DNA of 52,499 bases from Lactobacillaceae bacterium (GTDB lineage: Bacteria > Bacillota > Bacilli > Lactobacillales > Lactobacillaceae): positions 1-52,499 of the forward strand of contig JAITPD010000034.1 in the NCBI GenBank assembly GCA_031289615.1, in the 5' to 3' direction. The notes under the pieces are model-generated. The model made no database searches. It worked only from the letters and a program-made list of their open reading frames with translations, and was not told the origin of the DNA. Positions 6,113 through 50,848 of this stretch are shown one piece after another. Positions within the stretch are counted from its first letter, which is position 1, and the number at the start of each line of letters is the position of its first letter. The translations under genes and the position numbers were made by a program.

Positions 6113-6114
6113 GG

Positions 6115-8232: not shown

Positions 8233-11200
8233 CTACTTACTAACTTGATGCACATGAATCTCATAGGCATCACCCTTTGAATTTGCACCCTTTTGTTCAA
8301 ACGATTTAAGAATATAGATACTATTTGAACCCTTTTGCAACGTATACGTCTTTGAGAATCTCTCCGCTGCAAGTCCCATGTAAGCATCACCGTGTTCATC
8401 TAGCCAAATGCTGTCATTAGAACTAGCGATTCCATTAAAGACGGTCTCATCATTCACCATCACTGTTGAACCACCATTATGCGATGTTACCGTTCCACTC
8501 AAAGTAAACTTAGTGTTCGTCGTATACACATCATAAACATTTGAACCCTCTCGGTGAATCCAAGTAGCCTCAGTGTCTAAATGCACGACCGGCTTACCCA
8601 AGTCAACCGCGAGTACGTGCGTTTCTTCTGAATGTTTAACTACATCATTCACACTATAATCATACTCAACAGTAAAGAGTTTCTTCGTGACATTCTCAAT
8701 GTCTTTTGCCACGTATTTGAATGAACCATCTGCATTGATCTTAACTTGATTTTCTGTCGCATTTGGATCAGTGCTATTGATGATAATTTTCATGTTAGCA
8801 ACTGTTGGTAAAGCATAACCAGAAATCGTATATTCCTTAGTGTCAGGATTATAAATTGCGTACTCATTATTGTCATCCACAAGATTAGAGGGATCAACAA
8901 TTCCATCAACTGTCAAAAATTCAACCGGATTTGCCTCAGTTAAGCCATCCATAATTCCAACACGTTCAGCCTTAATTGGCAAAATTGGATCAGAATTCTT
9001 TCCATCATCAATTTCCACGTCATCCAAAGTATACCCTGCTGGCAAACGGTAGACTGTAATAGAATTGTCTCCAACAAAATTCTTCAAATCAGTAGCATAA
9101 TTCTGAATTTTGTCGCCTTCCTCACCCAAACAAGGAAGTAAAGTTCGATCACTATTATATTGCTCTAGTAAGTTCAAAACTGTTTTGTCATATGAATTAA
9201 ATTCAATCTTATTTGCACCTGTCGCTCCTTCAAACAAAGCTGTTTTCACTTCCTCTGGAGAATCAGTATGGGTTTTGTTGGTCAACGTCTCTGAATTAGC
9301 CAATTCTTGTGCATCATACAGGTGAACAGTCGCAGAATAGTTCCCTTGACTGTCAATCTCACTTGCCTCGCCAACACTCTTACCATCAATAGGATTAACC
9401 ACGTGCAGATTATTTTTATGGTACAACTTTATATCATCAGTTGGGCCTGAAGGATAAATATAACCTGGGCTTACAGTTTGAAGTAACCCAGATTGTTGAT
9501 CAATTGTCTGAGCATTATACACAAACATCTTACTTGCTTGGTGTTCATTAAATTGCCCGTTCAATGTCAATTCTTCGACATCATTTGGCACAACCAACAC
9601 TGAAGTCTCACCACGCATCACCCATTTACCATGGTTAATTTGCGCAATTTTTTCATCACTGTCAGTCAAAGCATGATCTGCCATCGGATCAACATTCAAA
9701 TTCGGCACTAATGGCTTGTGTAACGCTTCCCCAGTTTCATCAGTGAAAGTAATATATCCAATAGTTGCAATTTCTAGCTTTTGCTTCCAATGACCGGTTT
9801 GGCTTGGTGTCACCTGAACAGATTTCACCAGCTGATCTTCATACGTATAAGTTGAAATCGTAAACGCCTTAGAATTATCATAATCCCCGTTCATAGTAAT
9901 TTGCCAGTTATCGCTACCTAATGGTGTAAGGTCGAATGCATTAATTAAATCAGAACTCTTATCTGAACTAATCATTGGATCACGAATTGCCCCAACTTGT
10001 AAATGTGTTCGCTCTACATCACTATACAATGCGAACTCTTCTCCCTGCGTATCAACGTTTAACTGCTTCGAATATGTTGTCAAATCAGTATCAGAACCCT
10101 TATCCTTAGTTAAATCGACCAATATCTTATTTTCGTACCAATTACCATTTCCGGCGTTATCACGCACCGTAAATTCAACTGTATTACCGGTTTCTTTAAG
10201 GTCAGTCAACTGATTTTGATTCACGGTAAATTTAATCTTTTTAGCATTCCAATCTACATCACTGATAGCACTATTTTGACCAGCTTTATAAAATGCTTCT
10301 TTTCCATTAATTCGTACACTCACCCCCGCACCTTCTGGGTTAATATCTGTTGTCACAATTCCAGAACCGTTTTCTTCAATTTCTCCAGAAAGGACAAACT
10401 GCTGTTCATCATTGTCTGATTCCTTTGGTTGGGCTACCAATGTAACATTCTTAACCTTAGGAACGACATTGTCCACAGTCAGCTTATGATACTTAATTTC
10501 TGTCTTCTTACCATCCCAAGAAGTTGCCTTGACCCGGATATAATAAATTCCGTCAGGTGCCTTGTTCATATCACCATTCGTTGGATCTGGAAGCATTCCA
10601 TCCCAGTCAGCAGTAATCTGTTGTGGGGCGACATCCTGGTAGGTTGCTAAATGCTTCAAAAGCGTCTTTTTCTGCCCATCTAAGACATCAAATGACAATT
10701 CCTTTGACCACCGCATCACCTGTTCAAAATCAACCATTGCGTTATTACTTGAAGTTGAACTAAACGAAAGGGCCGCATGATTTGGGTCATTAGTCCAATA
10801 TTTCCCACCCAGCGCTGGATCGTCAACATCTGTGGCAGTAGCACGCAATGGCAACCCACTCGTTCCATTTGCTAGATAACCATATCCATAAACTGAGCCC
10901 TTTTCCTCAGCTGATTTATCCAAAATTGCATCTTGATCCCAATCGCCATAGAAACCAACATAAGGAATCGATTCAGCTGGTAAAGCAAGATCAGAAGTCG
11001 GTGTCACTTTAACGTAACCCTCAACCCAATTTTGTTCCGCAAATGTGTCTGGCAAAGTTATCGTAACTTGCACGGTCTTGATGGCATTCGCTGCAATTGT
11101 AACTTTTTGCTTATTGCTAGTCACTTCTGAGTCTGCCACTAATTCATCATTCACCAAATCCAAATTTTCTTTTTCGTCAGCCATATAGTATAACCCAACA

Positions 11201-13608
11201 TCATTCAAATGTTGCATATCAATAATCGAAGAACCGTGTGCTTTGATTCCTACTTTATTTGGCGTTTCAGGATCTTCAACTCGTACTTCAGTTTGCACTC
11301 CTTCTCCACCATCAATCGTATAAGTTTCGCGCTTGTTACTAGTGTTTTGAATATTCAACTTAAAAGTCTTAGTGGTTGTGGCAAAACTCTTCAAATTAAC
11401 AACACCATCACCGTCACTCGCATCAGTTACGACTGTAGTAGCTTTACTAGCTGAATCAACTTGCACCATTCCAGCTCCTTGTTGCCGTGGTGAATAAAGC
11501 GAATTATTTGCAACATCTGCCACAGGACTTGCAGTATTTTGAAGCATCGTTCGAATTTTCTTAACAAACGTCCCACTACCTTGTCCTAAATCGGTATTAT
11601 TCTTTTTTGCTTGTTGTTTCAACAGTGCAACAGATCCAGCGACGAATGGTGAGGCCATTGAGGTTCCACTCAGTTGTTGGTATCCATCGTTAGTCAATGA
11701 CCAAACGTGCCCACCAATACCAGTCACATCGGGTTTAATTTCCAAATCAGGAGTGGTTCCCCATGAACTGAATGTTGACATTTTCGCACTATCAGCATTA
11801 TCAACCTTTTCAATAAATGGTTCTGATATAGAAAGCCCAGATGCTCTACGATTATCATTGTTTACACTTTCATTATGCTCCATAATATACTTAGTTAATT
11901 TTTGCCCAGCTTCATATGACATTCCAATCGAAGGAACTGCTACACTTTCATCATACTTTTCCCATCCAAATGACGGCATTTCACGATCTTTATTATCAAT
12001 CAAAATAAGTCCCTTAATATGTGAACTGGTACTTTTTGCATGTAACATCTTTTGAATCTCTTCCAAGGTTCCTTCTTTATATTTAACAACAATAATTTCA
12101 TTCTTAGGAATTTGTAAATTTGAAATATCATTCATTGTCCCGCCAGCTTGTCCACTAGCAGAATCTTTAGAATCATTTAGCAACTCGATAGTACTTACAT
12201 CATCCCAAATATCATCTGGAATTCCCGGAGCTGCTTCAACTTGCATCATTCCAAATTGATCTACGCCATCCTTGCTAATTTTAACAAATGATGGCCTCTT
12301 TGAAGTTCCCTCCATCGAAGCGACTGAAATGGCTCCATCCGAATAAGCCAAATCCCCCAAACTGAAATCCTCTTCAACATTGTGTTCATCAGTGTGGTTG
12401 TCATCCATTCCACGGGTAGATGCACGTCCATCATTTGAGGCTGCAACGACTGGAACTACTCCAGCATCTGCCGCCCGATTCAAGGCAATTGACTCTGGTG
12501 CAATTTCCTTTGCGGTAGTCATTGTGCCACCCAAAGACAAATTCATAACGTCAGCGCCTAACTTAACTGAATCTTCAATCGCATCAATGATAGCGTCGGT
12601 AAAAGCACCTTGTCCATAATGTTCATCATTAGCAAAAACCTTCATATCCAATAATTGCGCTTCAGGTGCGACTCCTTGGACCTTTCCATTGGCCGCCATA
12701 ATTCCAGCAACGTGTTGCCCGTGCATATTAGTAACACCAGTTGAATCCTTTAATTCACTTTTTTTGTCAGAACCAACAGCATAATTGTGTGCATAAGGGA
12801 CCTTTTTTGATTCCCAAACTCCATAATTGTTAGCTTTCACAAAGGCTGTCGTGGTGGCCTTTGATAGCTTGAGAGCTGCTTTACCGGTCTTAGTCAACTT
12901 CAAGTCCGGGTGCGTGTAATCGATCCCTGAGTCAATATCAGCAATCAATATTCCAGCCCCATCTGCTCCATTGACCTTCCGATATTCGTCAGTTACTTGT
13001 GCAATCTCGTTGTCATCGGTATCGGCGGTCTGATAAACGCCTTGAATCGAAACACCCTTAACTCCCGCAATTTCTGCCAATTCTGCTAATTGAGATGGCT
13101 TTGCTTCAATCGAAAACGTGTTAACTAGATAACCTGAAGTGTCCGCAACTTTCTTCCCAGTAATTTTTTCTGACGCTTCTTGCATTGGCTTTTGCGCAGC
13201 GACGACACTTTTTTCAGCTGCATCAATAGCGTAAATTGAATCAGTCGTTCCATCTGCTTTCGGTGTGCTAATTTTTTCAATAGCAGCCTGCGCGTCTAAA
13301 GTCAAAGATACCTTGATATATGTGCTTGATTTTTCACCAAGCGTCATTTCGGTCGGCTTCTTACCTTGGTTTTCAAGCTGAGCATCATAAACCGTTGTCA
13401 TGCCCTTAGTTTTTTGATCATCTTCTTTTTCTGCTGTTGTCTTAGGAGTACTAACCGGGTACGCCTTTACAATACTACTCACTTTTTTCGCTGTGGCTAC
13501 TTCTGCTTGCTGTGTAGTTAGATAATCGGCAGTTAGCCCTGCTCCGATCAATCCAATTGCACCTAATACCAAAAGCGACTTCAACATGTAACTTTTATTC
13601 GTTATCAT
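8233..13608 (-). CDS. Secreted subtilisin-like (S8) cell-envelope serine protease
   Basis: This 1791-residue protein has an N-terminal signal peptide (hydrophobic about 10-27, likely cut near the AEVATA region). An I9-like propeptide follows (about 90-195). The S8 triad is complete: D226 in DIDSG, H296 in HGQHVAG and S650 in GTSMASP, with N392 as oxyanion residue. A PA-type insertion of about 170 residues (440-610) sits between H and S, as in lactocepins and C5a peptidases. Fn3-like and beta-sandwich repeats fill the remaining 1000 residues. No LPxTG motif, no C-terminal membrane helix and no obvious wall-binding repeat is seen, because the protein ends HVHQVSK. It therefore may be released or held non-covalently. 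The likely role is degrading proteins for amino acids or trimming surface proteins. The ATG follows AAAAGGAG. The gene is monocistronic with its own promoter and terminator. Confidence 0.93.
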   Translation of the reverse strand: MITNKSYMLKSLLVLGAIGLIGAGLTADYLTTQQAEVATAKKVSSIVKAYPVSTPKTTAEKEDDQKTKGMTTVYDAQLENQGKKPTEMTLGEKSSTYIKVSLTLDAQAAIEKISTPKADGTTDSIYAIDAAEKSVVAAQKPMQEASEKITGKKVADTSGYLVNTFSIEAKPSQLAELAEIAGVKGVSIQGVYQTADTDDNEIAQVTDEYRKVNGADGAGILIADIDSGIDYTHPDLKLTKTGKAALKLSKATTTAFVKANNYGVWESKKVPYAHNYAVGSDKKSELKDSTGVTNMHGQHVAGIMAANGKVQGVAPEAQLLDMKVFANDEHYGQGAFTDAIIDAIEDSVKLGADVMNLSLGGTMTTAKEIAPESIALNRAADAGVVPVVAASNDGRASTRGMDDNHTDEHNVEEDFSLGDLAYSDGAISVASMEGTSKRPSFVKISKDGVDQFGMMQVEAAPGIPDDIWDDVSTIELLNDSKDSASGQAGGTMNDISNLQIPKNEIIVVKYKEGTLEEIQKMLHAKSTSSHIKGLILIDNKDREMPSFGWEKYDESVAVPSIGMSYEAGQKLTKYIMEHNESVNNDNRRASGLSISEPFIEKVDNADSAKMSTFSSWGTTPDLEIKPDVTGIGGHVWSLTNDGYQQLSGTSMASPFVAGSVALLKQQAKKNNTDLGQGSGTFVKKIRTMLQNTASPVADVANNSLYSPRQQGAGMVQVDSASKATTVVTDASDGDGVVNLKSFATTTKTFKLNIQNTSNKRETYTIDGGEGVQTEVRVEDPETPNKVGIKAHGSSIIDMQHLNDVGLYYMADEKENLDLVNDELVADSEVTSNKQKVTIAANAIKTVQVTITLPDTFAEQNWVEGYVKVTPTSDLALPAESIPYVGFYGDWDQDAILDKSAEEKGSVYGYGYLANGTSGLPLRATATDVDDPALGGKYWTNDPNHAALSFSSTSSNNAMVDFEQVMRWSKELSFDVLDGQKKTLLKHLATYQDVAPQQITADWDGMLPDPTNGDMNKAPDGIYYIRVKATSWDGKKTEIKYHKLTVDNVVPKVKNVTLVAQPKESDNDEQQFVLSGEIEENGSGIVTTDINPEGAGVSVRINGKEAFYKAGQNSAISDVDWNAKKIKFTVNQNQLTDLKETGNTVEFTVRDNAGNGNWYENKILVDLTKDKGSDTDLTTYSKQLNVDTQGEEFALYSDVERTHLQVGAIRDPMISSDKSSDLINAFDLTPLGSDNWQITMNGDYDNSKAFTISTYTYEDQLVKSVQVTPSQTGHWKQKLEIATIGYITFTDETGEALHKPLVPNLNVDPMADHALTDSDEKIAQINHGKWVMRGETSVLVVPNDVEELTLNGQFNEHQASKMFVYNAQTIDQQSGLLQTVSPGYIYPSGPTDDIKLYHKNNLHVVNPIDGKSVGEASEIDSQGNYSATVHLYDAQELANSETLTNKTHTDSPEEVKTALFEGATGANKIEFNSYDKTVLNLLEQYNSDRTLLPCLGEEGDKIQNYATDLKNFVGDNSITVYRLPAGYTLDDVEIDDGKNSDPILPIKAERVGIMDGLTEANPVEFLTVDGIVDPSNLVDDNNEYAIYNPDTKEYTISGYALPTVANMKIIINSTDPNATENQVKINADGSFKYVAKDIENVTKKLFTVEYDYSVNDVVKHSEETHVLAVDLGKPVVHLDTEATWIHREGSNVYDVYTTNTKFTLSGTVTSHNGGSTVMVNDETVFNGIASSNDSIWLDEHGDAYMGLAAERFSKTYTLQKGSNSIYILKSFEQKGANSKGDAYEIHVHQVSK

Positions 13609-19549: not shown

Positions 19550-19609
19550 TTAAATTCGTTAAAAGTAGCACCTTAAATTTGTTAAAAGTAGCACCTTAAA
19601 TTTGTTAAA
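19550..19609. repeat. 23-base tandem repeat, 2.6 copies
   Basis: Two complete units (19550-19572 and 19573-19595) differ at one base (C/T). A 14-base partial third unit follows. Each unit contains GTTAAAAGTAGCACC. The function is not known. Repeated terminal boxes of this style occur at ends of some insertion sequences (IS21 type), but no transposase is nearby. Confidence 0.85.
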
Positions 19610-19675
19610 TGATGCAGGCGCTCGTCATTTAAACTGGTTTGAAAATATACCCCAAAACGCAAATAACGCAAACAG

Positions 19676-19719
19676 AAAAAGCATCTTAGTCAATCAGATA
19701 CACATCGACCAAGATACTT
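19676..19719 (-). terminator. Terminator closing the lysis-like cassette
   Basis: A 13-bp stem on the minus strand (AAGTATCTTGGTC with GACTAAGATGCTT, two G-U pairs) has a 15-base loop followed by a U run. It lies about 50 bases after the stop of the 191-residue gene. Confidence 0.75.
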
Positions 19720-19769: not shown

Positions 19770-20345
19770 CTATTTAAAATATAACTCACAAAATTTTCCA
19801 ACATTGAACTTTTTAATAACGACCAGATCAAATTGTTGCGTTGGCAAATATAAGGAATCATAGTCTAAATCAGCACTGACAAATACCGTTCCATCGGCAA
19901 GGGACTTCACTGTCGAATTTATCCAAAAATTAATTCCATTCGCTGTTTGTACAAATGGTCCTTTGCTTTTTTCTCCCCCTGTTTTTGTTAGTCCTTTCAA
20001 AATAAAATGACTCTGTTCTCGAGAAATCGTTTTAATAATAACCACCACATCCCCGAACTCTAAGTCTGTAAGTTCCCGTTCAATCTGCGCATTTCTTTCT
20101 TTTTGGTCTGCAATTTTATCGATGTGCAAAACGTGGCATAATCCCGAATCTTTTTCTGCTGAATCCCATTGATTGAATTCACGCACTGTATTAATATTAA
20201 ATTCTTGATACTTTCGTGTCTTCTCAGGTTTGATTCGTTGATCAATTGTCTGAGCCATACTCAAAGCAAACCCATAACAAACCATATCCGGAAGGTCACC
20301 CAAACGTTCCTTAGCTTCCTTGTAATAAGCGATATAATCACACAT
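19770..20345 (-). CDS. Uncharacterised protein, last gene of the lysis-like cassette
   Basis: The 191-residue protein has no signal peptide or membrane helix. It starts CDYIAYYKEAKERLGDLPDMVCYGFALSMAQ. Later parts look like a beta-rich domain (GDVVVIIKTISREQSHFILKGLT and VFVSADLDYDSLYLPTQQFDLVVIKKF). I do not recognise the family. It follows the largest CHAP-like gene by 33 bases with a good AGGAG site, and the cassette terminator comes just after it. A Cys near the start (VCYGFALS) and a later His (SHFIL) leave open a papain-like fold, but no clear motif supports this. An immunity or adaptor role is equally possible. Confidence 0.7.
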   Translation of the reverse strand: MCDYIAYYKEAKERLGDLPDMVCYGFALSMAQTIDQRIKPEKTRKYQEFNINTVREFNQWDSAEKDSGLCHVLHIDKIADQKERNAQIERELTDLEFGDVVVIIKTISREQSHFILKGLTKTGGEKSKGPFVQTANGINFWINSTVKSLADGTVFVSADLDYDSLYLPTQQFDLVVIKKFNVGKFCELYFK

Positions 20346-20378
20346 CTTATTTCTCCTAACTCGACTGAACTTCTGGCA

Positions 20379-21110
20379 TTACGCATTGCGTGCAGCCGTT
20401 GCATCCACCCAAACAAAATCATTAGCATCATTGTGCCCAATTTGGTCAATCAAAATCCCATTACTAGCTTCGTCATAGTCTTTAATGTCCATCGTGTCCA
20501 ACCCAAATGTGAACCAACCTTGCTCCAACTCTTCCGCTGTCGGATCCAGCACGCCGTTCGCTTCAAAAGAATATGGCGCTGCACCCGCTAACTCATGCGA
20601 AATAACCTGTTGACGTCCACCAAATTCACCCACTTCATCAATCGACCAATGCTTTTGATTCATCTGGACTTTACCAAACTGCCGTAAATATTGAACATCA
20701 TTGGCTTGGTTGTCTGGTTGATCAGTATTTTCAAAGACATGCACACCATCAATCCAACTCGACCAACCTGGATTTTCCAAAGGAGCTACTTTTCCGAGAT
20801 AACTTGCCATTGCACCATAACTTACGTGTGTTCCATTGGCATCCTCAATATGACCATCCGGTGCCACAAGCCAAACGTGACCCATTTCTGCATATTCACC
20901 TTGGCTAATATGTGCAAATCCGACCACCCAAATTCCACTTGGATAATTAAACCCAGTCGTGACATTACCATTTGCAATTTCTCGTTCATATGAGGCTTGG
21001 GCAGTTGCCAGACGTTGTGTCGCCCCCAAAGCGTCATCCACAAAGGCCAAACACCAGCCTGGCGTCCGTGTGACATTTAAATTTGGTGTTACTAATTGCG
21101 TATATCCCAT
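20379..21110 (-). CDS. CHAP-type amidase/endopeptidase, phage-lysin-like, with C-terminal domain
   Basis: The 243-residue protein starts QLVTPNLNVTRTPGWCLAFVDDALG, the opening of CHAP domains in lactic phage lysins. The catalytic Cys lies in PGWCL and the likely His in MGHVWLVAPDGHIEDANG. The second half (about 155-243: HWSIDEVGEFGGRQQVISHELAG, then SNGILIDQIGHNDANDFVWVDA) resembles C-terminal modules of phage lysins. CHAP enzymes cut peptidoglycan stem or cross-bridge peptides. No signal peptide is present, so export would need a holin or lysis. I chose the ATG at 21110 because AGAAGG precedes it. An in-frame upstream extension of 42 residues runs through the gap and has no domain character. 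It is the third of three paralogues, and the only one with the extra domain. Confidence 0.8.
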   Translation of the reverse strand: MGYTQLVTPNLNVTRTPGWCLAFVDDALGATQRLATAQASYEREIANGNVTTGFNYPSGIWVVGFAHISQGEYAEMGHVWLVAPDGHIEDANGTHVSYGAMASYLGKVAPLENPGWSSWIDGVHVFENTDQPDNQANDVQYLRQFGKVQMNQKHWSIDEVGEFGGRQQVISHELAGAAPYSFEANGVLDPTAEELEQGWFTFGLDTMDIKDYDEASNGILIDQIGHNDANDFVWVDATAARNA

Positions 21111-21156
21111 TTTTTGCCTTCTTTCTTGTTTTGATATTTTACTAGATAAGAATCCC

Positions 21157-21534
21157 TTACACTTCAATCCACAAATTAATTCCATCAACATGATTTGACC
21201 ATGCGGGATGTGAAAGAACTCCGCCGACCGCGTCATTCATTGCTGCATAATTTGCAAAAGTTCCGTTTGAATCCTCAATGTGTCCATCTGGTGCATAGAA
21301 CCAAACATGTCCAATCATTGGATAGCCCTCTGTCTTAGCAAAGCCAACACTCCATACCCCTGCAGGAGCATTAGTCCCTGCTGTTACGTTGTCAGCATCG
21401 ATTTCATAATCATACGCAATTTGTGCTGTATCCGACATTAACGGTGTTCCTAAGGCTACATCCACAAATGACAAACACCATCCTGGAATCCGTTCTACTG
21501 TAATATCTGGTACTACTAATTGTTGTCTAACCAT
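21157..21534 (-). CDS. CHAP-type lysin-like protein, single domain (paralogue 2)
   Basis: The 125-residue protein is the CHAP domain alone. Visible features are IPGWCLSFVDVALG with the catalytic Cys near residue 20, GHVWFYAPDGHIEDSNG with the likely catalytic His, and the closing NHVDGINLWIEV. It is clearly a paralogue of the proteins on both sides and keeps the same blocks in the same order. No signal peptide and no cell-wall-binding domain are seen, so targeting must come from elsewhere. It follows the first CHAP gene by 53 bases and precedes the third by 46. A GTAGGA ribosome site fits its ATG. Confidence 0.8.
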   Translation of the reverse strand: MVRQQLVVPDITVERIPGWCLSFVDVALGTPLMSDTAQIAYDYEIDADNVTAGTNAPAGVWSVGFAKTEGYPMIGHVWFYAPDGHIEDSNGTFANYAAMNDAVGGVLSHPAWSNHVDGINLWIEV

Positions 21535-21587
21535 TTTATTTTCCTACTTTCTTATTTTGATATTTTAAAAATTTCGCCGATTGTTTG

Positions 21588-22025
21588 CTAGTCTGCTTCT
21601 TCTTGATTATCAGGTACTGCTGGAACGTCATAGACAACCGGTGCCTCTGGAACATCAACCCACAGAGTAATCCCGTCAACTTGATTTGACCATCCAGGGT
21701 TTACAAGCGAATTATCAAGTGCTTCATTCATCGCAGCGTAATCTGCATAATGCCCATTTGAATCTTCAATGCTGCCATCTGGCGTATAAAACCAAACATG
21801 TCCTTCGTCATCACCAGTTTCAGCAAATCCAACACTCCATAACCCTGCAGGTGGTTGAACGTCATCGGTTATATGTCCTGCTCGATCCTCAATGGCATAT
21901 GCAATCAGCGCCGTATCCGACATTTGATCTTCTGCTAATCCCAAAGCACTGTCTACAAACTTAAGACAATACCCTTCTTCTCGTTCGGCGTGTAAATTTG
22001 GTACAACTAATTGTAATTTAAACAT
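21588..22025 (-). CDS. CHAP-type lysin-like protein with acidic tail (paralogue 1)
   Basis: The 145-residue protein begins QLVVPNLHAEREEGYCLKFVDSALG. It keeps the CHAP Cys (about residue 19) and the His in GHVWFYTPDGSIEDSNG. The usual first position of the PGWC block is changed to EGYC. After the domain end (WSNQVDGITLWVDV) comes a short Pro/Val/acidic tail (PEAPVVYDVPAVPDNQEEAD) not found in the paralogues. It could be a linker or partner-binding tail. The gene lies 30 bases after the holin-like gene, as holin-lysin pairs do in phages. A GAAGG site precedes the ATG. Confidence 0.8.
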   Translation of the reverse strand: MFKLQLVVPNLHAEREEGYCLKFVDSALGLAEDQMSDTALIAYAIEDRAGHITDDVQPPAGLWSVGFAETGDDEGHVWFYTPDGSIEDSNGHYADYAAMNEALDNSLVNPGWSNQVDGITLWVDVPEAPVVYDVPAVPDNQEEAD

Positions 22026-22055
22026 TATATTTTCCTTCTTTCAGTTCTATTTAAT

Positions 22056-22367
22056 TTATTTATTTGAATTCACTTTGCTCAGAGCCTGTTTCATCTCTGC
22101 CCAAGCAAATTCCAAAATTTCGTCAATTTGTTCCGTACTTAGATTGAACTTAATCTTGTGACTTTCCATCCAATCACTAAAGACTTTTCCAGCAAACGCT
22201 TTTTGTTCTGGCCCAGCCAAAGTGTCATTTTTTTGCTCGGCAACCCGTACAGCATATTGCGCAATTTTTTTCGTCATCTCAAATTTTTGATGATGATTCA
22301 GTGTCCTAAAATATTGGTACGCTAGAATCCCAATCGTTCCTAAAAATAAAATAATAACTATTTCCAT
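22056..22367 (-). CDS. LL-H-family holin-like membrane protein
   Basis: The 103-residue protein has one N-terminal membrane helix (IVIILFLGTIGILAYQYF) followed by a cytoplasmic helical part. KIAQYAVRVAEQK and KAFAGKVFSDWMESHKIKFNLSTEQIDEILEFAWAEMK match the layout of the LL-H type phage holins (Phage_holin_6_1). Such proteins open the membrane so that lysins without signal peptides can reach the wall. I chose the ATG at 22367, which follows the upstream stop by one base (TAAGATG) with GGTGG before it. A TTG four codons earlier is less likely. It sits directly before three CHAP genes. Confidence 0.65.
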   Translation of the reverse strand: MEIVIILFLGTIGILAYQYFRTLNHHQKFEMTKKIAQYAVRVAEQKNDTLAGPEQKAFAGKVFSDWMESHKIKFNLSTEQIDEILEFAWAEMKQALSKVNSNK

Positions 22368-22368
22368 C

Positions 22369-24543
22369 TTAACCACCAATCACTGGTTCAGCTGAATCTT
22401 TCGCCTGAACCTGAATGTCCTTCATCTTGTTGATAAAATCAAGAATTGACACAGAATTCCCAATCAAATCCTCAGTCTTTGGTGAAATCGGCTTACTCTT
22501 GTCTTCTGGCACAATCTGCAAATAATAACCAATAATTTGTGGCTCTGCGAATCGCACAATGATCGAGTTACCTGATGATTGAACAGATGAACTTGAGCTT
22601 TCATCCTTTGAAGATGAACCGCTCGAAGTTTGGAAGCCAAAGAAACCGCCACCGCTCGACACATGCTTTTCAACCATTGAAGAAGTCGCCGAACTCATCG
22701 AAGAATCATTTGTGATCTTGATCGTCACATCCTTTGCTAAGACGAATGCTGTTGGATAAACTGGCAATACACAATCGCGTAGCTCCTGATAGACACCCTC
22801 TTTCATTGTCGTGCATGCTGCAGAAATATTATCCGATGTCGACTTATACATATCTGATGTCAATCCAAAGACGCCGGGATTAAACCACGGCCGGTTAATC
22901 GTAACCTTTGTCACCGCCATTCCAATCTCAATAGTGGAATTACTTCCTGCACTGAAATCTGACGATGTATTAGCTGACTCACTAGTCGTTTTGCTTCCAC
23001 CAAAGAACCAAAAGCCACCGTTGGAAGATGAACTTGATGCTGATGATGAGCCAACATGGCTTGCATAGGCTTCACTCATATTTGAGGCCAGCATCATTTC
23101 CATGTAACCATTGTCCATGGTATTTGGATGCACATCTTGTTTTTGATTTTCATCCACATTCACCTGAACGGCTAATGCCAACTTTTGCTTGGCTTCGTCC
23201 AAATCTTCTTGAACATCACTGATCTGATTTTGCAGCATTCGTACCGTTGTCTTCAGTTGCTGTCCTAGCTTGGCCTCATTTAAGGCCATCACTCCGGCCA
23301 AAAGATCTGTGGTTGCAACATTGACAGCGTGTTGCGCATTTAAAAGACTAGTTTGGTTTTCGCCAAAATGTTTAATTACATTATTAATAACCTTAGTCTT
23401 TTCATCCTTGTTGGTGTCCTGTTCATCGTTATTCAGCCCATGAGTAGCTTCTTCTTGCTTTTTTCCTGATTCATTTTTAAATGTAGTGACAACTTCAACA
23501 ACCTGATGAGCAAAGTCAGTGAAATTATTGGTAGTAGTTGCACCATATTCACTAATCGTTCCTTCGTAAGCCTTTTTATTTTCCCGATATGCTGTCGTTA
23601 ACTTATCAACCTGCTCGTCACTAGGCAACAATGGTAGCAGAGTTTCCAAGCGATTACTTAATTGACGCTTTTGACGTGCCAACATACTAACCTTGCTTGC
23701 CAATGCCTCCTTTGACTCGAGCAAATCTGTATACTGAAATGAACTTGTCAGCTTTGTATGCCAGTCAGCTGGAAAAAATGATACCGGATAAACTTTGCCA
23801 CCATCTGGATCCAGCTTTTCAGCATTTGCTAGCATCATCCGAGCCTCGTGCAGTTCAGCACCCAAGCCTGTATCTAGCACACCTTGAATCACGCGCATGT
23901 CATTAACAGAAAAGATTCCAATGATCTTGCCGAACTTCTCTTCAATTGCAGCTAAATACGTCTCTGCATTATTTTGATACCATTCGAGATAATCTTCTTG
24001 AAAATTTTCATCATTTTCAATTGCCAAATCCGACGTATCATTGCGCGCCGTTTTTGGATACAGGTTCCGTAGCTCACGTCGCTTTGCCGTTTGAACCTCT
24101 GCCCAATGCTTCTTTTCAGCAATCCATTCATCATAAAGCCGGTAAAAGACTTGTTGAATTGTACTCTCTTCAATGCCGTCACCGAAATTATACTCATATG
24201 GAGTTGCCAACATTTTTCGTAAATTACTCTTAGCCTCCATCACTTCCATGTTTAATCGCGGTGACAACATATCAAGCGCAGTTTTGTATTGGCTTGTCAG
24301 CGTTCTACCGTTATCTGAACCAGTTGCTTTAACTGGATCAAAAAGTTTGTTCGCCAACCGACTTTCGTTCGCCGCAACTTTTAACGGCTTCTCTTTTCTT
24401 GCATCGTATTTAAAACTTTCTTCGTCCAAGACCGTTCCTGGAAAGTTCAAGCATAAAAATTGATCTGGATTAGTTCCACCAATGACACCATTTAATTCGT
24501 CGTAAAATTTGTCAATAAATGACTCTGTTTGGTCATCTGCCAT
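22369..24543 (-). CDS. Large uncharacterised protein with helical core and two Ser/Gly-rich aromatic segments
   Basis: The 724-residue protein has no signal peptide or continuous membrane helix. Residues 1-270 are mixed, with many Trp and Tyr. Residues about 270-460 are strongly helical and probably coiled-coil. The C-terminal third has two similar segments. In each, a Ser-rich run flanks a glycine-aromatic core: NGGFWFFGGS within about 495-535 and GGGFFGF within about 613-660. Strand-like blocks lie between and after them: VTINRPWFNP (547-556), VYPTAFVLAKDVTIK (595-609) and IIGYYLQIVPEDKS (670-683). I cannot name the family. The Ser/Gly-rich paired segments could be amphipathic hairpins, as in pore-forming proteins, or flexible loops. 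It lies 12 bases after a small gene and is coupled to the holin-like gene. AAGGAG precedes the ATG. Confidence 0.75.
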   Translation of the reverse strand: MADDQTESFIDKFYDELNGVIGGTNPDQFLCLNFPGTVLDEESFKYDARKEKPLKVAANESRLANKLFDPVKATGSDNGRTLTSQYKTALDMLSPRLNMEVMEAKSNLRKMLATPYEYNFGDGIEESTIQQVFYRLYDEWIAEKKHWAEVQTAKRRELRNLYPKTARNDTSDLAIENDENFQEDYLEWYQNNAETYLAAIEEKFGKIIGIFSVNDMRVIQGVLDTGLGAELHEARMMLANAEKLDPDGGKVYPVSFFPADWHTKLTSSFQYTDLLESKEALASKVSMLARQKRQLSNRLETLLPLLPSDEQVDKLTTAYRENKKAYEGTISEYGATTTNNFTDFAHQVVEVVTTFKNESGKKQEEATHGLNNDEQDTNKDEKTKVINNVIKHFGENQTSLLNAQHAVNVATTDLLAGVMALNEAKLGQQLKTTVRMLQNQISDVQEDLDEAKQKLALAVQVNVDENQKQDVHPNTMDNGYMEMMLASNMSEAYASHVGSSSASSSSSNGGFWFFGGSKTTSESANTSSDFSAGSNSTIEIGMAVTKVTINRPWFNPGVFGLTSDMYKSTSDNISAACTTMKEGVYQELRDCVLPVYPTAFVLAKDVTIKITNDSSMSSATSSMVEKHVSSGGGFFGFQTSSGSSSKDESSSSSVQSSGNSIIVRFAEPQIIGYYLQIVPEDKSKPISPKTEDLIGNSVSILDFINKMKDIQVQAKDSAEPVIGG

Positions 24544-24555
24544 AAATTTATCTCC

Positions 24556-25017
24556 TTATTTGTTAAAAGGTTTTCCAACCTTTTTTACCGCAATAATGCG
24601 ATCTAGTAGTTCAATTCTTGCTGTCTTTTTATCCAATTGCTTTTCCTCTGCGTCAGTGAGCTCTTCTTTTTGAAGTAACTCATCAACCTGCGCAGTGTAA
24701 ATATCCCTAAGCAACTCAGAATCAAGCGCCCACGCGTTCCCTATTTGTTCAAACTCATCTGCCTTAAAGTCTCCATCTGGAAAAGAAACTTGGTGTCCTT
24801 CAACTTCAAAGTCTTCTTCAACTCCAATTTTCTTCAACTCAGATTTCATAAACTCTGGTTGCTCTAACATAATGTCCAAAGCTTTGTATTCAGGCTTCTC
24901 ACCTAAATACTTTTGAGCCAGCAAATACACGGCATAACGGCCTGTATAATACCACCCACCAAGTTCATTCAACTTTGCTTCTAACTCTGACCAACTGGCC
25001 TCTGAAATAACGTTCAT
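24556..25017 (-). CDS. Small acidic helical protein, first gene of the lysis-like cassette
   Basis: The 153-residue soluble protein opens with WSELEAKLNELGGWYYTGRYAVYLLAQKYLG. Its middle contains EGHQVSFPDGDFKADEFEQIGNAW. It ends in charged helices (LTDAEEKQLDKKTARIELLDRIIAVKK). I do not recognise it. As the first gene, 12 bases before the 724-residue protein and behind a hairpin leader, it could be a chaperone or inhibitor for its neighbour, but nothing in the sequence proves that. It has no DNA-binding motif that I can see. A GGAG lies about 10 bases before the ATG. Confidence 0.7.
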   Translation of the reverse strand: MNVISEASWSELEAKLNELGGWYYTGRYAVYLLAQKYLGEKPEYKALDIMLEQPEFMKSELKKIGVEEDFEVEGHQVSFPDGDFKADEFEQIGNAWALDSELLRDIYTAQVDELLQKEELTDAEEKQLDKKTARIELLDRIIAVKKVGKPFNK

Positions 25018-25041: not shown

Positions 25042-25077
25042 TTTGTAATTGCTTTGATGGCCATCTCAAATTACAAA
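25042..25077 (-). promoter_or_regulatory. Inverted repeat in the leader of the lysis-like cassette
   Basis: TTTGTAATT and AATTACAAA (9 bp each, 25042-25050 and 25069-25077) enclose a perfect GATGGCCATC palindrome (25056-25065). The element begins about 25 bases before the first start codon. It could be a repressor site or an RNA hairpin. A T9 run at about 25090 and AT-rich DNA lie further upstream. I see no other gene in 25018-25256. Confidence 0.6.
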
Positions 25078-25256: not shown

Positions 25257-25299
25257 ACAAAAAAACACTAAATTAGTCCGTAGACCAATCTAGTGTTTT
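25257..25299 (-). terminator. Terminator closing the polysaccharide operon
   Basis: A 17-bp stem on the minus strand (AAAACACTAGATTGGTC with GACTAATTTAGTGTTTT, two G-U pairs) has a TACG tetraloop followed by a U run. It starts 14 bases after the phosphohexomutase stop. Confidence 0.92.
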
Positions 25300-30208: not shown

Positions 30209-31417
30209 CTAATTAAAATCTTCCATAATTATATCATAATAACGCTGTGCTGTTTTCGCCCACGTAAATTGTTTTGCGTACTCGTAACTTTCTTCGATGA
30301 TTTGTTGACGTTCTTCATCTGACAGATTATACATTTCGATCACTTTATCAGCAATTTGGCTGGAATCATCAGCATAAAAAGCGTATTTACCGCCAACTTC
30401 TGGAAGTGATGAATTGTTGTAAGTTAGAATCAAAGTCTTATTGAGCATTGACTCTAATACTGGAAGCCCAAACCCTTCGTACAAAGTAGGATACACAAAG
30501 GCGAGCGAGTGTGCATATAGCTCAGCTTTGTATTCATCTGAAATATAGCCAATGGTGATGATGTCGTTTCGGTAAGGAGACTCTAAAATGACATTTTTTA
30601 AATCAAGAAATTTAAGTTCTTGAATTTTTTCAAAAGGTTTACCAGCCAATACTAATTGAAAATCATATCCTTTTTGTTTTAAATCATTAAATTGTGTGAC
30701 TAATTGTTCCAGTTGTCGTCTTGGGCTAGGACTTCCTATGAAAAGCAAATATGGCTTATTTGGTAAATCTTTATCAGCAGTATTCAGCGTTTTTGCCGGC
30801 TTTTCATCAACTCCTAATGAGGCTACATCAATATCAACATTTAAATCTGGATAAATTCGTAAAATTTCATTCTTTGAGAAATTTGAAATTGAAATAATCT
30901 TTTTAGATTTTTTCAAATCTTTGTAAATCAATTGTTTCTTGATTTTCTTAATTAAACCCCTAACAAGTCGTTGCTTTAAAATTTTTTTCAATATTATTTT
31001 ATTATCTGCAAAAGTGAACCTATCTTCAAATACGAGTGGAATCAAGTCATACCAAACTAGATAAACATTATTTGCCTTAGGAACGTACCCTAAAACAGAA
31101 AACGATAGATACACATCCATTTCTTCGATCAAAGGATCCTTTTTAGAGAAAAAAGCATTTTTAAGCTTATCTAAGCGGCCAGTAACCAATGTTGATGGAT
31201 CGTAATATTTAATGTTGTATTTTAAATCGGCAGAGACATTAATAATTTGAAAAACTTCATTTTCTTTATCTCGATACATAAACAATGTCACTTCATCTAC
31301 ATTTTTATCTTTGGCAAGTAATGGCAGCAGTTTATTGGTAACTTGTTTGGTAACTTCACCTATTCCGCGATATGCACTGGCCGTTTGTAATTCTTTTAAA
31401 TCTATGCCAATTTTCAT
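30209..31417 (-). CDS. GT4 glycosyltransferase (tandem paralogue C)
   Basis: The 402-residue GT-B enzyme opens with MKIGIDLKELQTASAYRGIG, shared almost word for word with the next two upstream genes. The C-terminal half has LLFIGSPSPRR, VILESPYRNDIITIGYISD and the catalytic EX7E in YEGFGLPVLE, followed by SLPEVGGKYAFY. These are features of GT4 mannosyl/rhamnosyl-type transferases. It is the last transferase before gmd and rmd, so GDP-D-rhamnose or GDP-mannose is the most likely donor. It lies 29 bases after paralogue B. The exact linkage is not predictable. Confidence 0.85.
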   Translation of the reverse strand: MKIGIDLKELQTASAYRGIGEVTKQVTNKLLPLLAKDKNVDEVTLFMYRDKENEVFQIINVSADLKYNIKYYDPSTLVTGRLDKLKNAFFSKKDPLIEEMDVYLSFSVLGYVPKANNVYLVWYDLIPLVFEDRFTFADNKIILKKILKQRLVRGLIKKIKKQLIYKDLKKSKKIISISNFSKNEILRIYPDLNVDIDVASLGVDEKPAKTLNTADKDLPNKPYLLFIGSPSPRRQLEQLVTQFNDLKQKGYDFQLVLAGKPFEKIQELKFLDLKNVILESPYRNDIITIGYISDEYKAELYAHSLAFVYPTLYEGFGLPVLESMLNKTLILTYNNSSLPEVGGKYAFYADDSSQIADKVIEMYNLSDEERQQIIEESYEYAKQFTWAKTAQRYYDIIMEDFN

Positions 31418-31446
31418 TTAACTTCCTCCAAATAAAAACGTAACTA

Positions 31447-32667
31447 CTAGTTCTGCTGGTCCCCGGTCATCAAAATATCATAGAATTTTTGCGCCGTTTT
31501 AGCCCACGTAAATTGTTTAGCGTGATTATAACTTTGTTCAATGATTTTCTGCCGTTCGCTGTCAGAGAGACTTTCAATTTCTAACACTTTGCTAGCAATT
31601 TCATTTGAGCTATTAACATAAAATGCATATCTACCCCCAACCTCGGGTAAAGAAGAATTATCGTACGTTAGTACTAATGTCTTAGCGAGCATTGCTTCTA
31701 GTACAGGCAGACCAAATCCTTCATAAAGGGTCGGATAAACAAACGCCAGCGCATGACTATATAGCTCACTTTTATATTCATCTGAAATGTAGCCAACTGT
31801 AATAATATCGTCTCGATATGGAGATTCTAAAATCGCTTCTTTAACATCTTGGGACTCAATTTTATCGATGTGTTCAAATGACTTGCCTGCCAGCACGAGT
31901 TGAAAATCATGCCCATTTTGTTTTAGTTGATTATATTGCTCAATTAAAGAGGCAATTTCTCTTTTGGGATCAATCCCACCGATAAACAACAAATATGGTT
32001 TTTCCGGTAAAGTATCGTCAACGGTATTCACCGTTTTAGATGGCGTTTCTGACACGCCTAGCAAAGCCACATCAATTGGAATATTCAATCCTGGGAAAAT
32101 TTTAGCGACATCATCTTTTGTATACTGTGAAATCGCAATTAAACGCTTTGCCCTCTGCATCTTCTTCTGCATTCTAGCCTTAATTATTAAAAAAATAAAA
32201 CTTCTAAATAGCTGATTATTCCTTAAAAAGAGGCTAATTGAATCAGTTTTATTACGTAGAAAATAGATGCGATATAAAACAAGTGTAATCGCATCATACC
32301 AAACTAAAAACACATTGCGCGCTTTTGGAACGTAACCAATAATTGAAAATGAAAGAAAAACATCCATCTCGTCGGCATCTTGATCGACTTTAGTTGGTAA
32401 AAGAGCTCTTTTTAATCTAGCAAATTTATTTAAATTTAAATTTTCTGGATTATAATATCTAACACTATAATTTAAATTATCGGGAATAGTAATCATTTTT
32501 AAGACGTCATCTTGTTTCATATCATACATAAAGAAAACGACTTCAATTCCATCTGGATTATTTCCTAATAGTGGCAATAGATTGTTGGTAACTTGCTTGG
32601 TAGCTTCACCAATTCCACGATATGCACTAAAAGACTGTAAATCTTTTAAATCAATGCCAATTTTCAT
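31447..32667 (-). CDS. GT4 glycosyltransferase (tandem paralogue B)
   Basis: The 406-residue protein shows the same plan as its neighbours: GIDLKDLQSFSAYRGIGEATKQVTN at the start, LLFIGGIDPKREIASLIEQYN, AGKSFEHIDKIE, then ESPYRDDIITVGYISD and YEGFGLPVLEAML with the EX7E pair. A basic, more hydrophobic stretch in the middle (about 135-180: RNKTDSISLFLRNNQLFRSFIFLIIKARMQKKMQRAK) may attach the enzyme to the membrane. It sits 59 bases after paralogue A. High similarity to both neighbours points to local gene duplication followed by specialisation for successive linkages. Confidence 0.85.
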   Translation of the reverse strand: MKIGIDLKDLQSFSAYRGIGEATKQVTNNLLPLLGNNPDGIEVVFFMYDMKQDDVLKMITIPDNLNYSVRYYNPENLNLNKFARLKRALLPTKVDQDADEMDVFLSFSIIGYVPKARNVFLVWYDAITLVLYRIYFLRNKTDSISLFLRNNQLFRSFIFLIIKARMQKKMQRAKRLIAISQYTKDDVAKIFPGLNIPIDVALLGVSETPSKTVNTVDDTLPEKPYLLFIGGIDPKREIASLIEQYNQLKQNGHDFQLVLAGKSFEHIDKIESQDVKEAILESPYRDDIITVGYISDEYKSELYSHALAFVYPTLYEGFGLPVLEAMLAKTLVLTYDNSSLPEVGGRYAFYVNSSNEIASKVLEIESLSDSERQKIIEQSYNHAKQFTWAKTAQKFYDILMTGDQQN

Positions 32668-32726
32668 GTGTGACTTTCCCTTCGAATGATTGATCCACCA
32701 CTTAAAATGTATAAGCGATTAGTTTA

Positions 32727-33938
32727 TTAGTCGAAATCTTTCATCATTATCTCGTAATATTTTTGAGCTGTTTTAGCCCATGTGAATTGCTTAGCGTATT
32801 CATAGCTTTCATCAATGACTTGTTGGCGCTTTTCGTTTGGTAATTCATACATTTCGATGATCTTATCACCTAATTCGCTAGCGTCATTTGCATAAAAAGC
32901 ATATTCACCGCCAACCTCTGGCAATGAAGAATTGTTATAAGTCAGGATCAAAGTTTTAGCAAGCATTGCCTCTAAAACAGGTAGGCCAAACCCTTCATAC
33001 AAAGTTGGGTACACAAAAGCGAGTGAATTAGAGTATAATTTTGCCTTATATTCATCTGAAATGTAACCAATGTTGATAATATCGTCACGATAAGGAGACA
33101 TCAAAATCGCATTCTTAATATTTAAAATTGCGATTTTTTCGACATCTTCAAAAGCTTTTCCAGCTAAAACAATTTGTATATCAAACCCAGCTTCTTTTAA
33201 ATGATTAAACTGATCAATCAGCGGCGCAATTTCGCGTTTTTTATCAATCCCACCTACAAATAATAAGTATGGTTTCGTTGGCAAAGTCTCATTTAAACTG
33301 TTGACCGTTTTAGCTGGTTTTTCTGATACTCCTAAAAATGCTACATCAATTGGGATCTTTAATTCTGGAAAAATCCTCTGTAAATCTTGTTTAGTATATT
33401 CGGAAATAGCAATTAAATGCTTGGCCTTGTTTAGTTCTTGTTTAACTCGTTGCTTCCGAACTTTGTAAGCTAATTTCATTAAAAATGGACTGTTTTTAAT
33501 AATCTTGCTAATCTTACCTGTATTGTTCCACAAGAAATACATGTGGTGTAACACAAGCGGAATTAAATCGTACCAAACTAGGTAGAGATTTTTTGATTTT
33601 GGTAGATAACCTAAGAATGAATACGATAAAAATAAATCAACTTGTTCTACGTCTTGATTTCTCAATGGAAAGAAGGCGTTTTTCAGTGATTGAAAACGTG
33701 CTAAATCTAACGTAGCAGGGTCGTAATATTTAATGTTATATGTTAGTTGTTTAGGAATATCAAGCATTCCCAACGCTTCTTCTTGCTTGTCTTCATACAT
33801 AAAGAAAGTAACTTCATCAATTCTTTTATCATTAACCAGCAATGGTAATAAATAATTAGTTACTTGTTTTGCAACTTCACCAATTCCGCGATACGCGCTA
33901 TCTGATTGTAAATCTTTTAAATCAATTCCAATTTTCAT
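32727..33938 (-). CDS. GT4 glycosyltransferase (tandem paralogue A)
   Basis: The 403-residue protein is the first of the three paralogues and overlaps the flippase gene by one base. GIDLKDLQSDSAYRGIGEVAKQVTN marks the N-terminal half. LLFVGGIDKKREIAPLIDQFN, VLAGKAFEDVEKIA and YEGFGLPVLEAML (EX7E) mark the C-terminal half. D-rhamnan synthesis in Pseudomonas also uses three GT4 enzymes, so a matching three-transferase set here is plausible, though sequence alone cannot assign linkages. Confidence 0.85.
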   Translation of the reverse strand: MKIGIDLKDLQSDSAYRGIGEVAKQVTNYLLPLLVNDKRIDEVTFFMYEDKQEEALGMLDIPKQLTYNIKYYDPATLDLARFQSLKNAFFPLRNQDVEQVDLFLSYSFLGYLPKSKNLYLVWYDLIPLVLHHMYFLWNNTGKISKIIKNSPFLMKLAYKVRKQRVKQELNKAKHLIAISEYTKQDLQRIFPELKIPIDVAFLGVSEKPAKTVNSLNETLPTKPYLLFVGGIDKKREIAPLIDQFNHLKEAGFDIQIVLAGKAFEDVEKIAILNIKNAILMSPYRDDIINIGYISDEYKAKLYSNSLAFVYPTLYEGFGLPVLEAMLAKTLILTYNNSSLPEVGGEYAFYANDASELGDKIIEMYELPNEKRQQVIDESYEYAKQFTWAKTAQKYYEIMMKDFD

Positions 33939-41636: not shown

Positions 41637-42677
41637 CTAAGAACCATTTTTAAACTGCTTCGTTTTATCAGCATAACGTCGTTTAGTTAATGATAAATAC
41701 CGATCAAAATCAGGAAACAAATCATCTTCATTGTAGTGGTAGGAGTACAACTTATTCCTAATATCATCCAATGCTAAGGCCAACGTTTGCTTTCCATCGT
41801 TACTTGAATCTTTTTGATCATCCTCTAACAAAATATTTCCGTAATCATCACTAACATAGCTCAAACAAATACTGACACGATCTATTTTTACATTATCATC
41901 GATAACCATTGTGTCTTCTAATTTATCAAAATTAAGAAATGCACCTTTTTGTGCCGTAACTCGCTTATTATGATCATTAACTTCAACATCTTGAAATAAC
42001 TTATTGTCCTTAGAGCCCTCCTTGACAAAGAAAACGTCTAAACGTGGCTCTGGATATTGCTCATCATATTTATACCCTGTAGACATAAATAACATTGCAA
42101 TAAAAGGGTTTTCAGTTATATCAACAAGTGGTGTCCCTAACCCATAATGTTGAAGAACAGCCAAGTTTTCCGCTCGCTTTTCATCGCCACTCTGAGTAAA
42201 TTGAAAATTATTTGGAAATTTTTTCATAATTAAATTAAAAATGCTCTCGTAATTAATTCTAAATTTATCAGAATAACCACCCTCGCCTTCTCTAAAAATA
42301 GTCGGCTTAAGAGGCCAATTACCAGACTGACCACGATAATAAATTTTATACTCTTCATCCCTTACACACCCAGAAATAATATCTAATATTTCCTTGAATG
42401 AATAAAAGCTAGACCATTTTAGTCGTTGTGTAGAATAATTTTGATCTGTTTCTAGTTTGCGAATTGCTTCTGTTAACTCTGATTGCGAAATATTCAAAAA
42501 TCTTGACTGGTGCTGTTCACCTTCTTCGACCACAATATCTCGAACTGTATACACCATATTTTCACAAAAAGTTGACAACGAAATATTAATATTTATTTTA
42601 AGAGTATCAAAAATTTTCTTTTCGTCATATTTTTCTTTTCTTTGTTGATAATCAATTTTAGCAAAATTTTGTAGCAT
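41637..42677 (-). CDS. FRG-domain protein
   Basis: The 346-residue soluble protein has the FRG signature YYRGQ (R115-G116-Q117). Later come LQHYGLGTPLVDITENPFIAMLF (about 175-197), matching the domain's typical HYG, P, D-x-T-x-NP pattern. The domain is known from bacterial accessory regions, but its activity is not settled. The N-terminal 90 residues are charged and helical, and the last 100 contain several acidic clusters. It follows an ImmA/IrrE-type peptidase by 15 bases. This pairing suggests a two-gene unit such as a toxin or defence effector with a regulatory protease. The AT-rich DNA contrasts with the adjacent MurNAc operon and fits acquisition. Confidence 0.85.
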   Translation of the reverse strand: MLQNFAKIDYQQRKEKYDEKKIFDTLKININISLSTFCENMVYTVRDIVVEEGEQHQSRFLNISQSELTEAIRKLETDQNYSTQRLKWSSFYSFKEILDIISGCVRDEEYKIYYRGQSGNWPLKPTIFREGEGGYSDKFRINYESIFNLIMKKFPNNFQFTQSGDEKRAENLAVLQHYGLGTPLVDITENPFIAMLFMSTGYKYDEQYPEPRLDVFFVKEGSKDNKLFQDVEVNDHNKRVTAQKGAFLNFDKLEDTMVIDDNVKIDRVSICLSYVSDDYGNILLEDDQKDSSNDGKQTLALALDDIRNKLYSYHYNEDDLFPDFDRYLSLTKRRYADKTKQFKNGS

Positions 42678-50817: not shown

Positions 50818-50848
50818 TGTTTCAACCTCCAATCTAAACTTTTCTTAA

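What the first reader, a model, noticed from the sequence alone, without database searches (positions are those of the whole stretch)
19770..25017. Holin plus three CHAP lysin-like proteins plus an unknown 724-residue protein, without a prophage
Seven closely spaced genes between two strong terminators encode a small acidic protein, a large unknown protein, an LL-H-like holin, three CHAP paralogues without signal peptides and an unknown protein. Phage holin and lysin genes are adjacent like this, yet no integrase, capsid, tail or terminase gene is present. The unit may be a domesticated lysis module used for programmed lysis, release of a cargo or toxin, or antagonism. The large protein and the triplication of the lysin domain are not part of any lysis cassette I know. 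The cassette lies between a polysaccharide operon and an envelope gene group, in an otherwise accessory stretch.
Basis: partly seen in the sequence, partly recalled or inferred. Interest (0 to 1): 0.78.

Follow-up and report, generated by a model that had tools for sequence, protein, structure and literature searches.

The report
Self-lysis gene cassette with unknown cargo
A lactic-acid-type bacterium carries a small chromosomal gene set in which phage-type cell-opening genes sit next to a large protein of a rare, undescribed family, and the two relatives of that protein found so far also sit beside cell-wall-cutting enzymes, so it may be a unit that opens the producing cell to release something.

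Summary
Seven minus-strand ORFs (25017 down to 19770) lie between two strong terminators: an acidic 153-aa protein, a 724-aa orphan, an LL-H-family holin, three tandem CHAP-like cysteine hydrolases and a 191-aa unknown. No phage structural gene was recognised in the contig. The hydrolases belong to a phage lysis-region family (active-site Cys kept in 45 of 45 sequences; small membrane-protein genes enriched beside viral relatives) and arose by tandem duplication; the third carries a phage-lysin-type C-terminal domain.

New here: the 724-aa protein belongs to a rare family. Two full-length relatives were found: 55% identical in a Streptococcaceae MAG, 26% in an unnamed Bacilli genome. Each directly adjoins a phage-type hydrolase without a signal-like N-terminus, of other families (Amidase_5; Amidase_3). 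The holin and CHAP-like genes adjoin only the window copy.

Best reading: a domesticated lysis-and-release cassette, working like type 10 secretion or the clostridial Bcn5-UviB-amidase clusters, with the 724-aa protein as cargo or membrane-acting partner. Two conserved Ser-rich, Gly/aromatic-tipped C-terminal stretches hint at membrane attack, but the structure models were of low confidence. Function is untested.

The parts
25262..25299 (-). Terminator hairpin closing the upstream phosphomannomutase-like gene
   Evidence: 17-nt inverted repeat, 88% complementary; fold z -6.5, 0 of 200 shuffles as stable
25042..25077 (.). Perfect 9-bp inverted repeat with 18-nt centre, upstream of g1: possible operator (inferred)
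   Evidence: as an RNA hairpin it is no more stable than shuffles (z 0.14)
24556..25017 (-). g1: 153-aa acidic protein (pI 4.6), unknown
   Evidence: no Pfam/PHROG/NCBIfam/PADLOC family at E <= 1; no phage match
22369..24543 (-). g2: 724-aa protein of an undescribed family; helical N-terminal part, two Ser-rich stretches in the C-terminal part; proposed cargo/effector
   Evidence: relatives in L020 (55%) and G951/L023 (26%, E 9.1e-59); conserved motifs
22056..22367 (-). g3: LL-H-family holin, likely 103 aa
   Evidence: PF09682 1.5e-9, TIGR01673 over cut-off, phrog_6918 holin 3.9e-11; no tblastn match in the phage collection
21588..22025 (-). g4: 145-aa CHAP-like cysteine hydrolase domain with a Pro-rich tail
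   Evidence: phrog_12298 2.8e-8; Cys20/His78 equivalents
21157..21534 (-). g5: 125-aa CHAP-like cysteine hydrolase domain alone
   Evidence: phrog_12298 6.6e-9; 59% identical to g4
20379..21110 (-). g6: 243-aa CHAP-like domain plus C-terminal domain like that of a Weissella phage lysin
   Evidence: phrog_12298 9.3e-17; C-terminal 108 residues 42.6% identical to Weissella phage WC29P3 lytic amidase
19770..20345 (-). g7: 191-aa unknown protein
   Evidence: no family at useful E; no phage match; PDB best 0.0098 to ATP synthase, a short local match judged chance
19679..19719 (-). Terminator hairpin closing the unit
   Evidence: 16-pair stem followed by a U-run, z -6.1, 0 of 200 shuffles as stable

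Best explanation
A domesticated phage-lysis cassette that releases a cytosolic cargo. The seven genes are read as one unit from upstream of g1 to the terminator after g7 (inferred). The 724-aa protein and the three CHAP-like hydrolases are made in the cytosol without signal peptides. The LL-H holin opens the membrane at a set time or stimulus, the hydrolases reach and cut the wall, and producing cells (probably a minority) lyse, releasing the 724-aa protein and probably the lysins to act on neighbours or a host. The 724-aa protein is most likely the effector and may attack membranes through its Ser-rich, Gly/aromatic-tipped C-terminal stretches. Shown: gene content, operon-like layout between terminators, constraint, phage-type holin and hydrolases, adjacency of the large protein to hydrolases in both relatives. 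Inferred: co-transcription, lysis, timing, release and target.
For: Tight same-strand layout between two real terminators. Holin by two curated cut-offs. Hydrolases of a phage family whose active-site Cys is kept in 45 of 45 sequences and whose viral relatives have small membrane ORFs within two genes in 15 of 36 usable loci (20 of 136 neighbours against 2 of 107 other ORFs). Lysin-type C-terminal domain on g6. Large protein conserved as a family and directly beside a phage-type, signal-less hydrolase in 2 of 2 relatives. Purifying constraint. No phage structural gene recognised near any of the three loci. Precedents: YenLC type 10 secretion (PMC10847048) and the Bcn5-UviB-amidase clusters (PMC9527704 section 6).
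Against: No holin-like ORF adjoins either relative, and their hydrolases belong to other families, so the complete cassette is seen once. Only two relatives were found, and the background rate of hydrolase neighbours was not measured. g1 and g7 have no counterpart beside the relatives beyond a 7-bit score of g1 to the L020 lysin. The cargo role has no direct evidence; the fold model of g2 is poor (pLDDT 44, pTM 0.27). The holin had no tblastn match in the phage collection.
Confidence: 0.5

Rival explanations
1. The 724-aa protein is itself a lysis component: a membrane perforator acting on the producer (altruistic suicide, for example on phage infection) that lets the hydrolases out. In the relatives it takes the place of a holin.
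For: Both relatives have a hydrolase but no adjacent holin; conserved Ser-rich, Gly/aromatic-tipped stretches in 3 of 3 members.
Against: The window copy has a holin of its own. No PADLOC defence family beyond weak coiled-coil scores (RmrA 0.0032, ZorA 0.034). No TM-like segment.
Confidence: 0.2
2. The lysins are the weapons: class III bacteriocin-like hydrolases released to kill neighbours, with g2 as helper, adhesin or immunity-type partner.
For: Three hydrolases, one with a lysin-type C-terminal domain; lactococcal prophage lysins reported to act as bacteriocins (PMC10377672, abstract).
Against: The large protein is the element shared by the three loci, while hydrolase families differ. Two of the three window hydrolases lack a recognisable binding domain.
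Confidence: 0.15
3. A decaying prophage or satellite remnant: lysis genes plus a passenger gene left behind.
For: Holin and hydrolases are phage-type; what looks like a prophage lies elsewhere in the genome.
Against: All seven ORFs open between terminators; purifying constraint; no phage gene recognised near; g2 family not found in phage, plasmid or viral-contig collections; hydrolases multiplied after acquisition.
Confidence: 0.1

Closest known systems
Type 10 secretion / lysis cassettes, e.g. YenLC of Yersinia entomophaga (PMC10847048, abstract and discussion read)
   Same: Phage-derived holin and cell-wall hydrolase beside a large cytosolic protein without signal peptide, outside a phage
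   Different: Gram-positive host, LL-H holin, three CHAP-like hydrolases, no spanins, unrelated putative cargo; release not shown
Bcn5-UviB-amidase bacteriocin clusters of clostridia (PMC9527704, section 6 read)
   Same: Large signal-less protein, holin and hydrolase encoded together in a Gram-positive
   Different: Other holin family (BhlA), amidase instead of CHAP-like enzymes, sigma factor UviA, Bcn5 with a peptidase-like domain; no similarity of g2 to Bcn5 was tested
Phage lysis-region family phrog_12298 (Lactococcus phage GE1, Arthrobacter phages Salgado and MargaretKali)
   Same: Same domain with Cys20/His78 equivalents; next to an annotated holin in Salgado and MargaretKali
   Different: About 27-35% identical to the window paralogues in the listed phages and contigs apart from a few short segments; single-copy in the phage stretches looked at
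Bacteriocin-like prophage lysins of Lactococcus (PMC10377672, abstract read)
   Same: Lysins of lactic acid bacteria that may act on neighbours
   Different: Encoded in prophages, no large partner protein

Membership tests
LL-H holin family (PF09682 / TIGR01673) | Score over the curated cut-offs | tested here: met
   38.6 against 24.9 bits; 35.6 against 34.75 bits
LL-H holin family (PF09682 / TIGR01673) | Membrane permeabilisation | not testable with these tools
   one TM-like stretch by hydropathy only
CHAP / NlpC-P60-like cysteine peptidoglycan hydrolase | Pfam CHAP or NLPC_P60 score | tested here: not met
   no Pfam family at E <= 1 for g4-g6, nor a meaningful one for five phage relatives
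CHAP / NlpC-P60-like cysteine peptidoglycan hydrolase | Conserved Cys at a helix start and His at a strand start | tested here: met
   Cys20 45 of 45 (His78 was part of the search pattern there), both 8 of 8; low-confidence model puts them at helix 22-46 and strand 77-82
CHAP / NlpC-P60-like cysteine peptidoglycan hydrolase | Papain-like fold | tested here: inconclusive
Type 10 secretion / domesticated lysis cassette | Holin plus cell-wall hydrolase outside a phage | tested here: met
   (phage genes judged by eye)
Type 10 secretion / domesticated lysis cassette | Cargo transcriptionally coupled to the lysis genes | tested here: inconclusive
   layout between terminators; no RNA data
Type 10 secretion / domesticated lysis cassette | Release of the cargo by lysis or translocation | not testable with these tools
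   needs expression and release assays
Prophage | Structural, packaging or integration genes nearby | tested here: not met
   none recognised among ORFs >= 120 aa in the contig (by eye)
Beta-barrel pore-forming toxin (for g2) | Fold match to a known pore former | tested here: inconclusive
eCIS-associated effector (for g2) | eCIS core (PF13699) genes in the same genome | tested here: not met
   0 in the window genome and 0 in G845; 2 places in G951, on other contigs than the relative

The most novel reading that the evidence does not exclude
The 724-aa protein founds a new family of large cytosolic membrane-attacking effectors of Gram-positive bacteria, paired with non-secreted phage-type lysins of whatever family is at hand: a cargo-plus-lysin module that recruits its release machinery from phages.
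Probability: 0.25. Interest if true: 0.82.

Novelty: new variant of a known kind. Interest (0 to 1): 0.6.

Why it matters
Lysis-based protein release has been described in a few, mostly pathogenic, bacteria. A lactic-acid-type bacterium with a dedicated lysis unit, and a rare protein family found beside unrelated lysins in all three genomes where it is known, would extend the idea to other Gram-positives, name a new candidate cargo family and make it testable in laboratory strains.

Tried and rejected
Dropped from the g2 family as chance, Ser-rich or coiled-coil matches: G079 (34% over 102 residues); five short hits at E <= 0.01 in G079, G136, G594, G038 and G791; G098 (108 positions). Prophage remnant: kept as a rival, thought unlikely. 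eCIS link: the 950-aa protein upstream of the G951 relative has a VGNRAV-type N-terminal stretch that I recall from eCIS effectors; the passages of PMC11297309 that I saw do not describe it, and the window genome has no eCIS core, so it is not used. RNA hairpin at 25042-25077: z 0.14. Relation of g7 or of the 149-aa L020 protein to the CHAP-like proteins: no significant score. The CHAP-like hit in G015 (254 aa, L017) has a hydrophobic N-terminus and is a lone chromosomal gene. A scan of viral contigs with the narrow hydrolase alignment A1 found no relative in 10 pattern matches; the wider alignment A5 found 42. g2 fold: pLDDT 44, so fold matches are not used. Host genus: not named by any search; the own prophage had no megablast match in phages, and 'Weissella-like' is a guess from the lysin match. 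Low Foldseek and PDB scores gave no family.

Full report
WHAT IS THERE. The minus strand from 25017 to 19770 holds seven tightly packed ORFs with Shine-Dalgarno-like leaders. A 17-pair hairpin closes the phosphomannomutase-like gene upstream (25262-25299, z -6.5) and a 16-pair hairpin with a U-run closes the unit (19679-19719, z -6.1); the consensus scanner missed both. By hydropathy the only membrane protein is g3. The window is a whole contig of a 2.01-Mb draft genome in 65 contigs.

THE LYSIS GENES. g3 is an LL-H holin by two curated cut-offs, although tblastn found no match in the phage collection. g4, g5 and g6 are paralogues (59% and 47% identity to g4). They reach no Pfam family at E <= 1 but match phrog_12298, a family labelled 'membrane associated protein'. 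Eight aligned window and phage proteins keep Cys20, His78, Asp85 and Gly86. A scan of viral contigs with that alignment found 42 relatives among 53 pattern matches. Cys20 is kept in all 45 sequences then compared; His78 was part of the search pattern, so its constancy there is by construction. At 36 of the 42 loci the ORF could be assigned (6 dropped); 15 of the 36 have a small membrane-type ORF within two same-strand genes, 20 of 136 neighbours against 2 of 107 other ORFs, Fisher p 0.0005. Several contigs are near-copies, so that p is optimistic, and 21 of 36 loci lack such a neighbour. An annotated holin adjoins the gene in phages Salgado and MargaretKali, but not in Qui, LG75P3 or GE1. In a FastTree tree of the matched segments g4-g6 group together (support 0.99), so the triplication followed acquisition. 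The C-terminal 108 residues of g6 are 42.6% identical to the end of a Weissella phage lysin, which scores 23.7 bits, below the 27.4 cut-off, for the Zoocin A target-recognition domain. A weak model of g6 (pLDDT 46) puts Cys20 just before a helix and His78 in a strand; the second-look list is led by papain-like cell-wall hydrolases at low Z (PlyPy 5.3, Tse1 4.5, Lys2972 4.5), while Foldseek itself had nothing at E <= 0.001 and led with methyl-CpG-binding domains.

THE LARGE PROTEIN. g2 has no Pfam match over a cut-off (best 0.014), none in PHROGs or NCBIfam at E <= 1, weak coiled-coil-type scores in PADLOC (0.0032), and nothing in the PDB by sequence at E <= 1 (profile best 0.17). It was not found in the phage and plasmid collections with two different queries or in viral contigs in four scans. 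Single-sequence searches found itself plus one chance hit in 150 relatives, itself only in 398 phylum genomes, and itself plus five short chance hits at E <= 0.01 in 395 order genomes. The first genome-contig scan found no relative in 18 pattern matches. The second, with C-terminal stretches that I guessed to be conserved, found 1 in 29: a Streptococcaceae MAG (L020) with a 739-aa protein, 55% identical. A two-sequence profile found one more in 348 class genomes, G951, E 9.1e-59, 26% identical. A three-sequence profile found no further full-length member in 269 phylum genomes, nor in the 7 genomes of G951's family or the 14 of its order apart from G951 itself. These genome sets overlap. The family is real and, in these collections, rare and sporadic.

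THE LINK. In L020 the gene after the relative, 21 or 48 nt on depending on the start, is an Amidase_5 enzyme (1.7e-20) with a C-terminus that scores just below the Zoocin A domain cut-off (26.4 against 27.4 bits); a 149-aa unknown follows. In G951 the gene before the relative, 77 or 119 nt away, is an Amidase_3 enzyme (1.1e-34; best phage family phrog_435 endolysin), preceded by a 950-aa unknown. Neither hydrolase has a signal-like N-terminus by hydropathy. So 3 of 3 known members sit next to, or within one gene of, a cytosolic phage-type hydrolase, from three families. I did not measure the background; cell-wall hydrolases are, from general knowledge, about one per cent of genes. Against a common full cassette: no holin-like same-strand ORF adjoins either relative, and g1 and g7 have no convincing counterparts there (g1 scores 7 bits to the L020 lysin). 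No phage structural gene was recognised by eye in the 11.2-kb L020 contig or within about 20 kb of the G951 locus.

WHAT THE LARGE PROTEIN MIGHT DO. The three members share, in order, a Ser/Thr-rich stretch around a Gly/aromatic tip, an I.R.W motif, YP.A..L.KDVTI, a second Ser/Thr-rich stretch around GGF, and PQIIGY (Ser+Thr 0.47-0.50 in two members and 0.35 in the third). The model gives helices up to residue 460 and strands between 511 and 677 at pLDDT 44; second-look matches cover only the coiled coil 271-470 and lie in the range expected for any long helices. Membrane attack is a suggestion from composition, not a result.

HOW IT COMPARES. Lysis cassettes repurposed for release are described for Yersinia entomophaga, where a cell subpopulation lyses (PMC10847048, abstract and discussion read), and proposed for clostridial bacteriocins encoded with a holin and an amidase (PMC9527704, section 6 read). 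Prophage lysins of Lactococcus can act as bacteriocins (PMC10377672, abstract read). A search for 'type 10 secretion' with 'Lactobacillales' and 'holin' found no paper; 'holin', 'Weissella' and 'peptidoglycan hydrolase' gave 7, none by its title about such a unit. The library lacks most subscription journals, so absence from print is not shown.

VERDICT. A real, open, non-prophage lysis-type unit whose large gene belongs to a rare family placed beside lysins in every member found. It most plausibly works as a lysis-and-release cassette; cargo role and membrane attack need experiments.

Noticed in passing
window 41637-42677 and 42693-43262, minus strand: Adjacent genes that look by eye like an FRG-domain protein and an ImmA/IrrE-type metallopeptidase (recalled motifs), possibly a toxin-antitoxin or defence pair.
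   Followed up: no
window 30209-33938, minus strand: Three tandem paralogous glycosyltransferase-like genes of about 400 aa.
   Followed up: no
window about 19550-19610: A direct repeat of about 23 nt just downstream of the cassette's terminator (seen).
   Followed up: no
window 49588-50832; L020 1250-2434: Similar-looking ATPase genes (GVRRSGKST type) occur in the window, 25 kb from the cassette, and 2 kb upstream of the L020 relative; compared by eye only.
   Followed up: no
L023 4335-7187 and L027 582-1676 (G951): Large proteins with N-terminal VGNRAV / IGNQAT-type stretches that I recall from eCIS effectors; the genome has two PF13699 places on other contigs.
   Followed up: partly
L018 (G000 contig C18, 6000-25000): What looks like a prophage in the same genome with tail genes, an LL-H-type holin (26% identical to g3) and an endolysin-like gene.
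   Followed up: partly
window 4556-7734 and 8233-13608, minus strand: Two adjacent glycosyltransferase-like proteins and a 1791-aa subtilisin-like cell-envelope proteinase (by eye).
   Followed up: no
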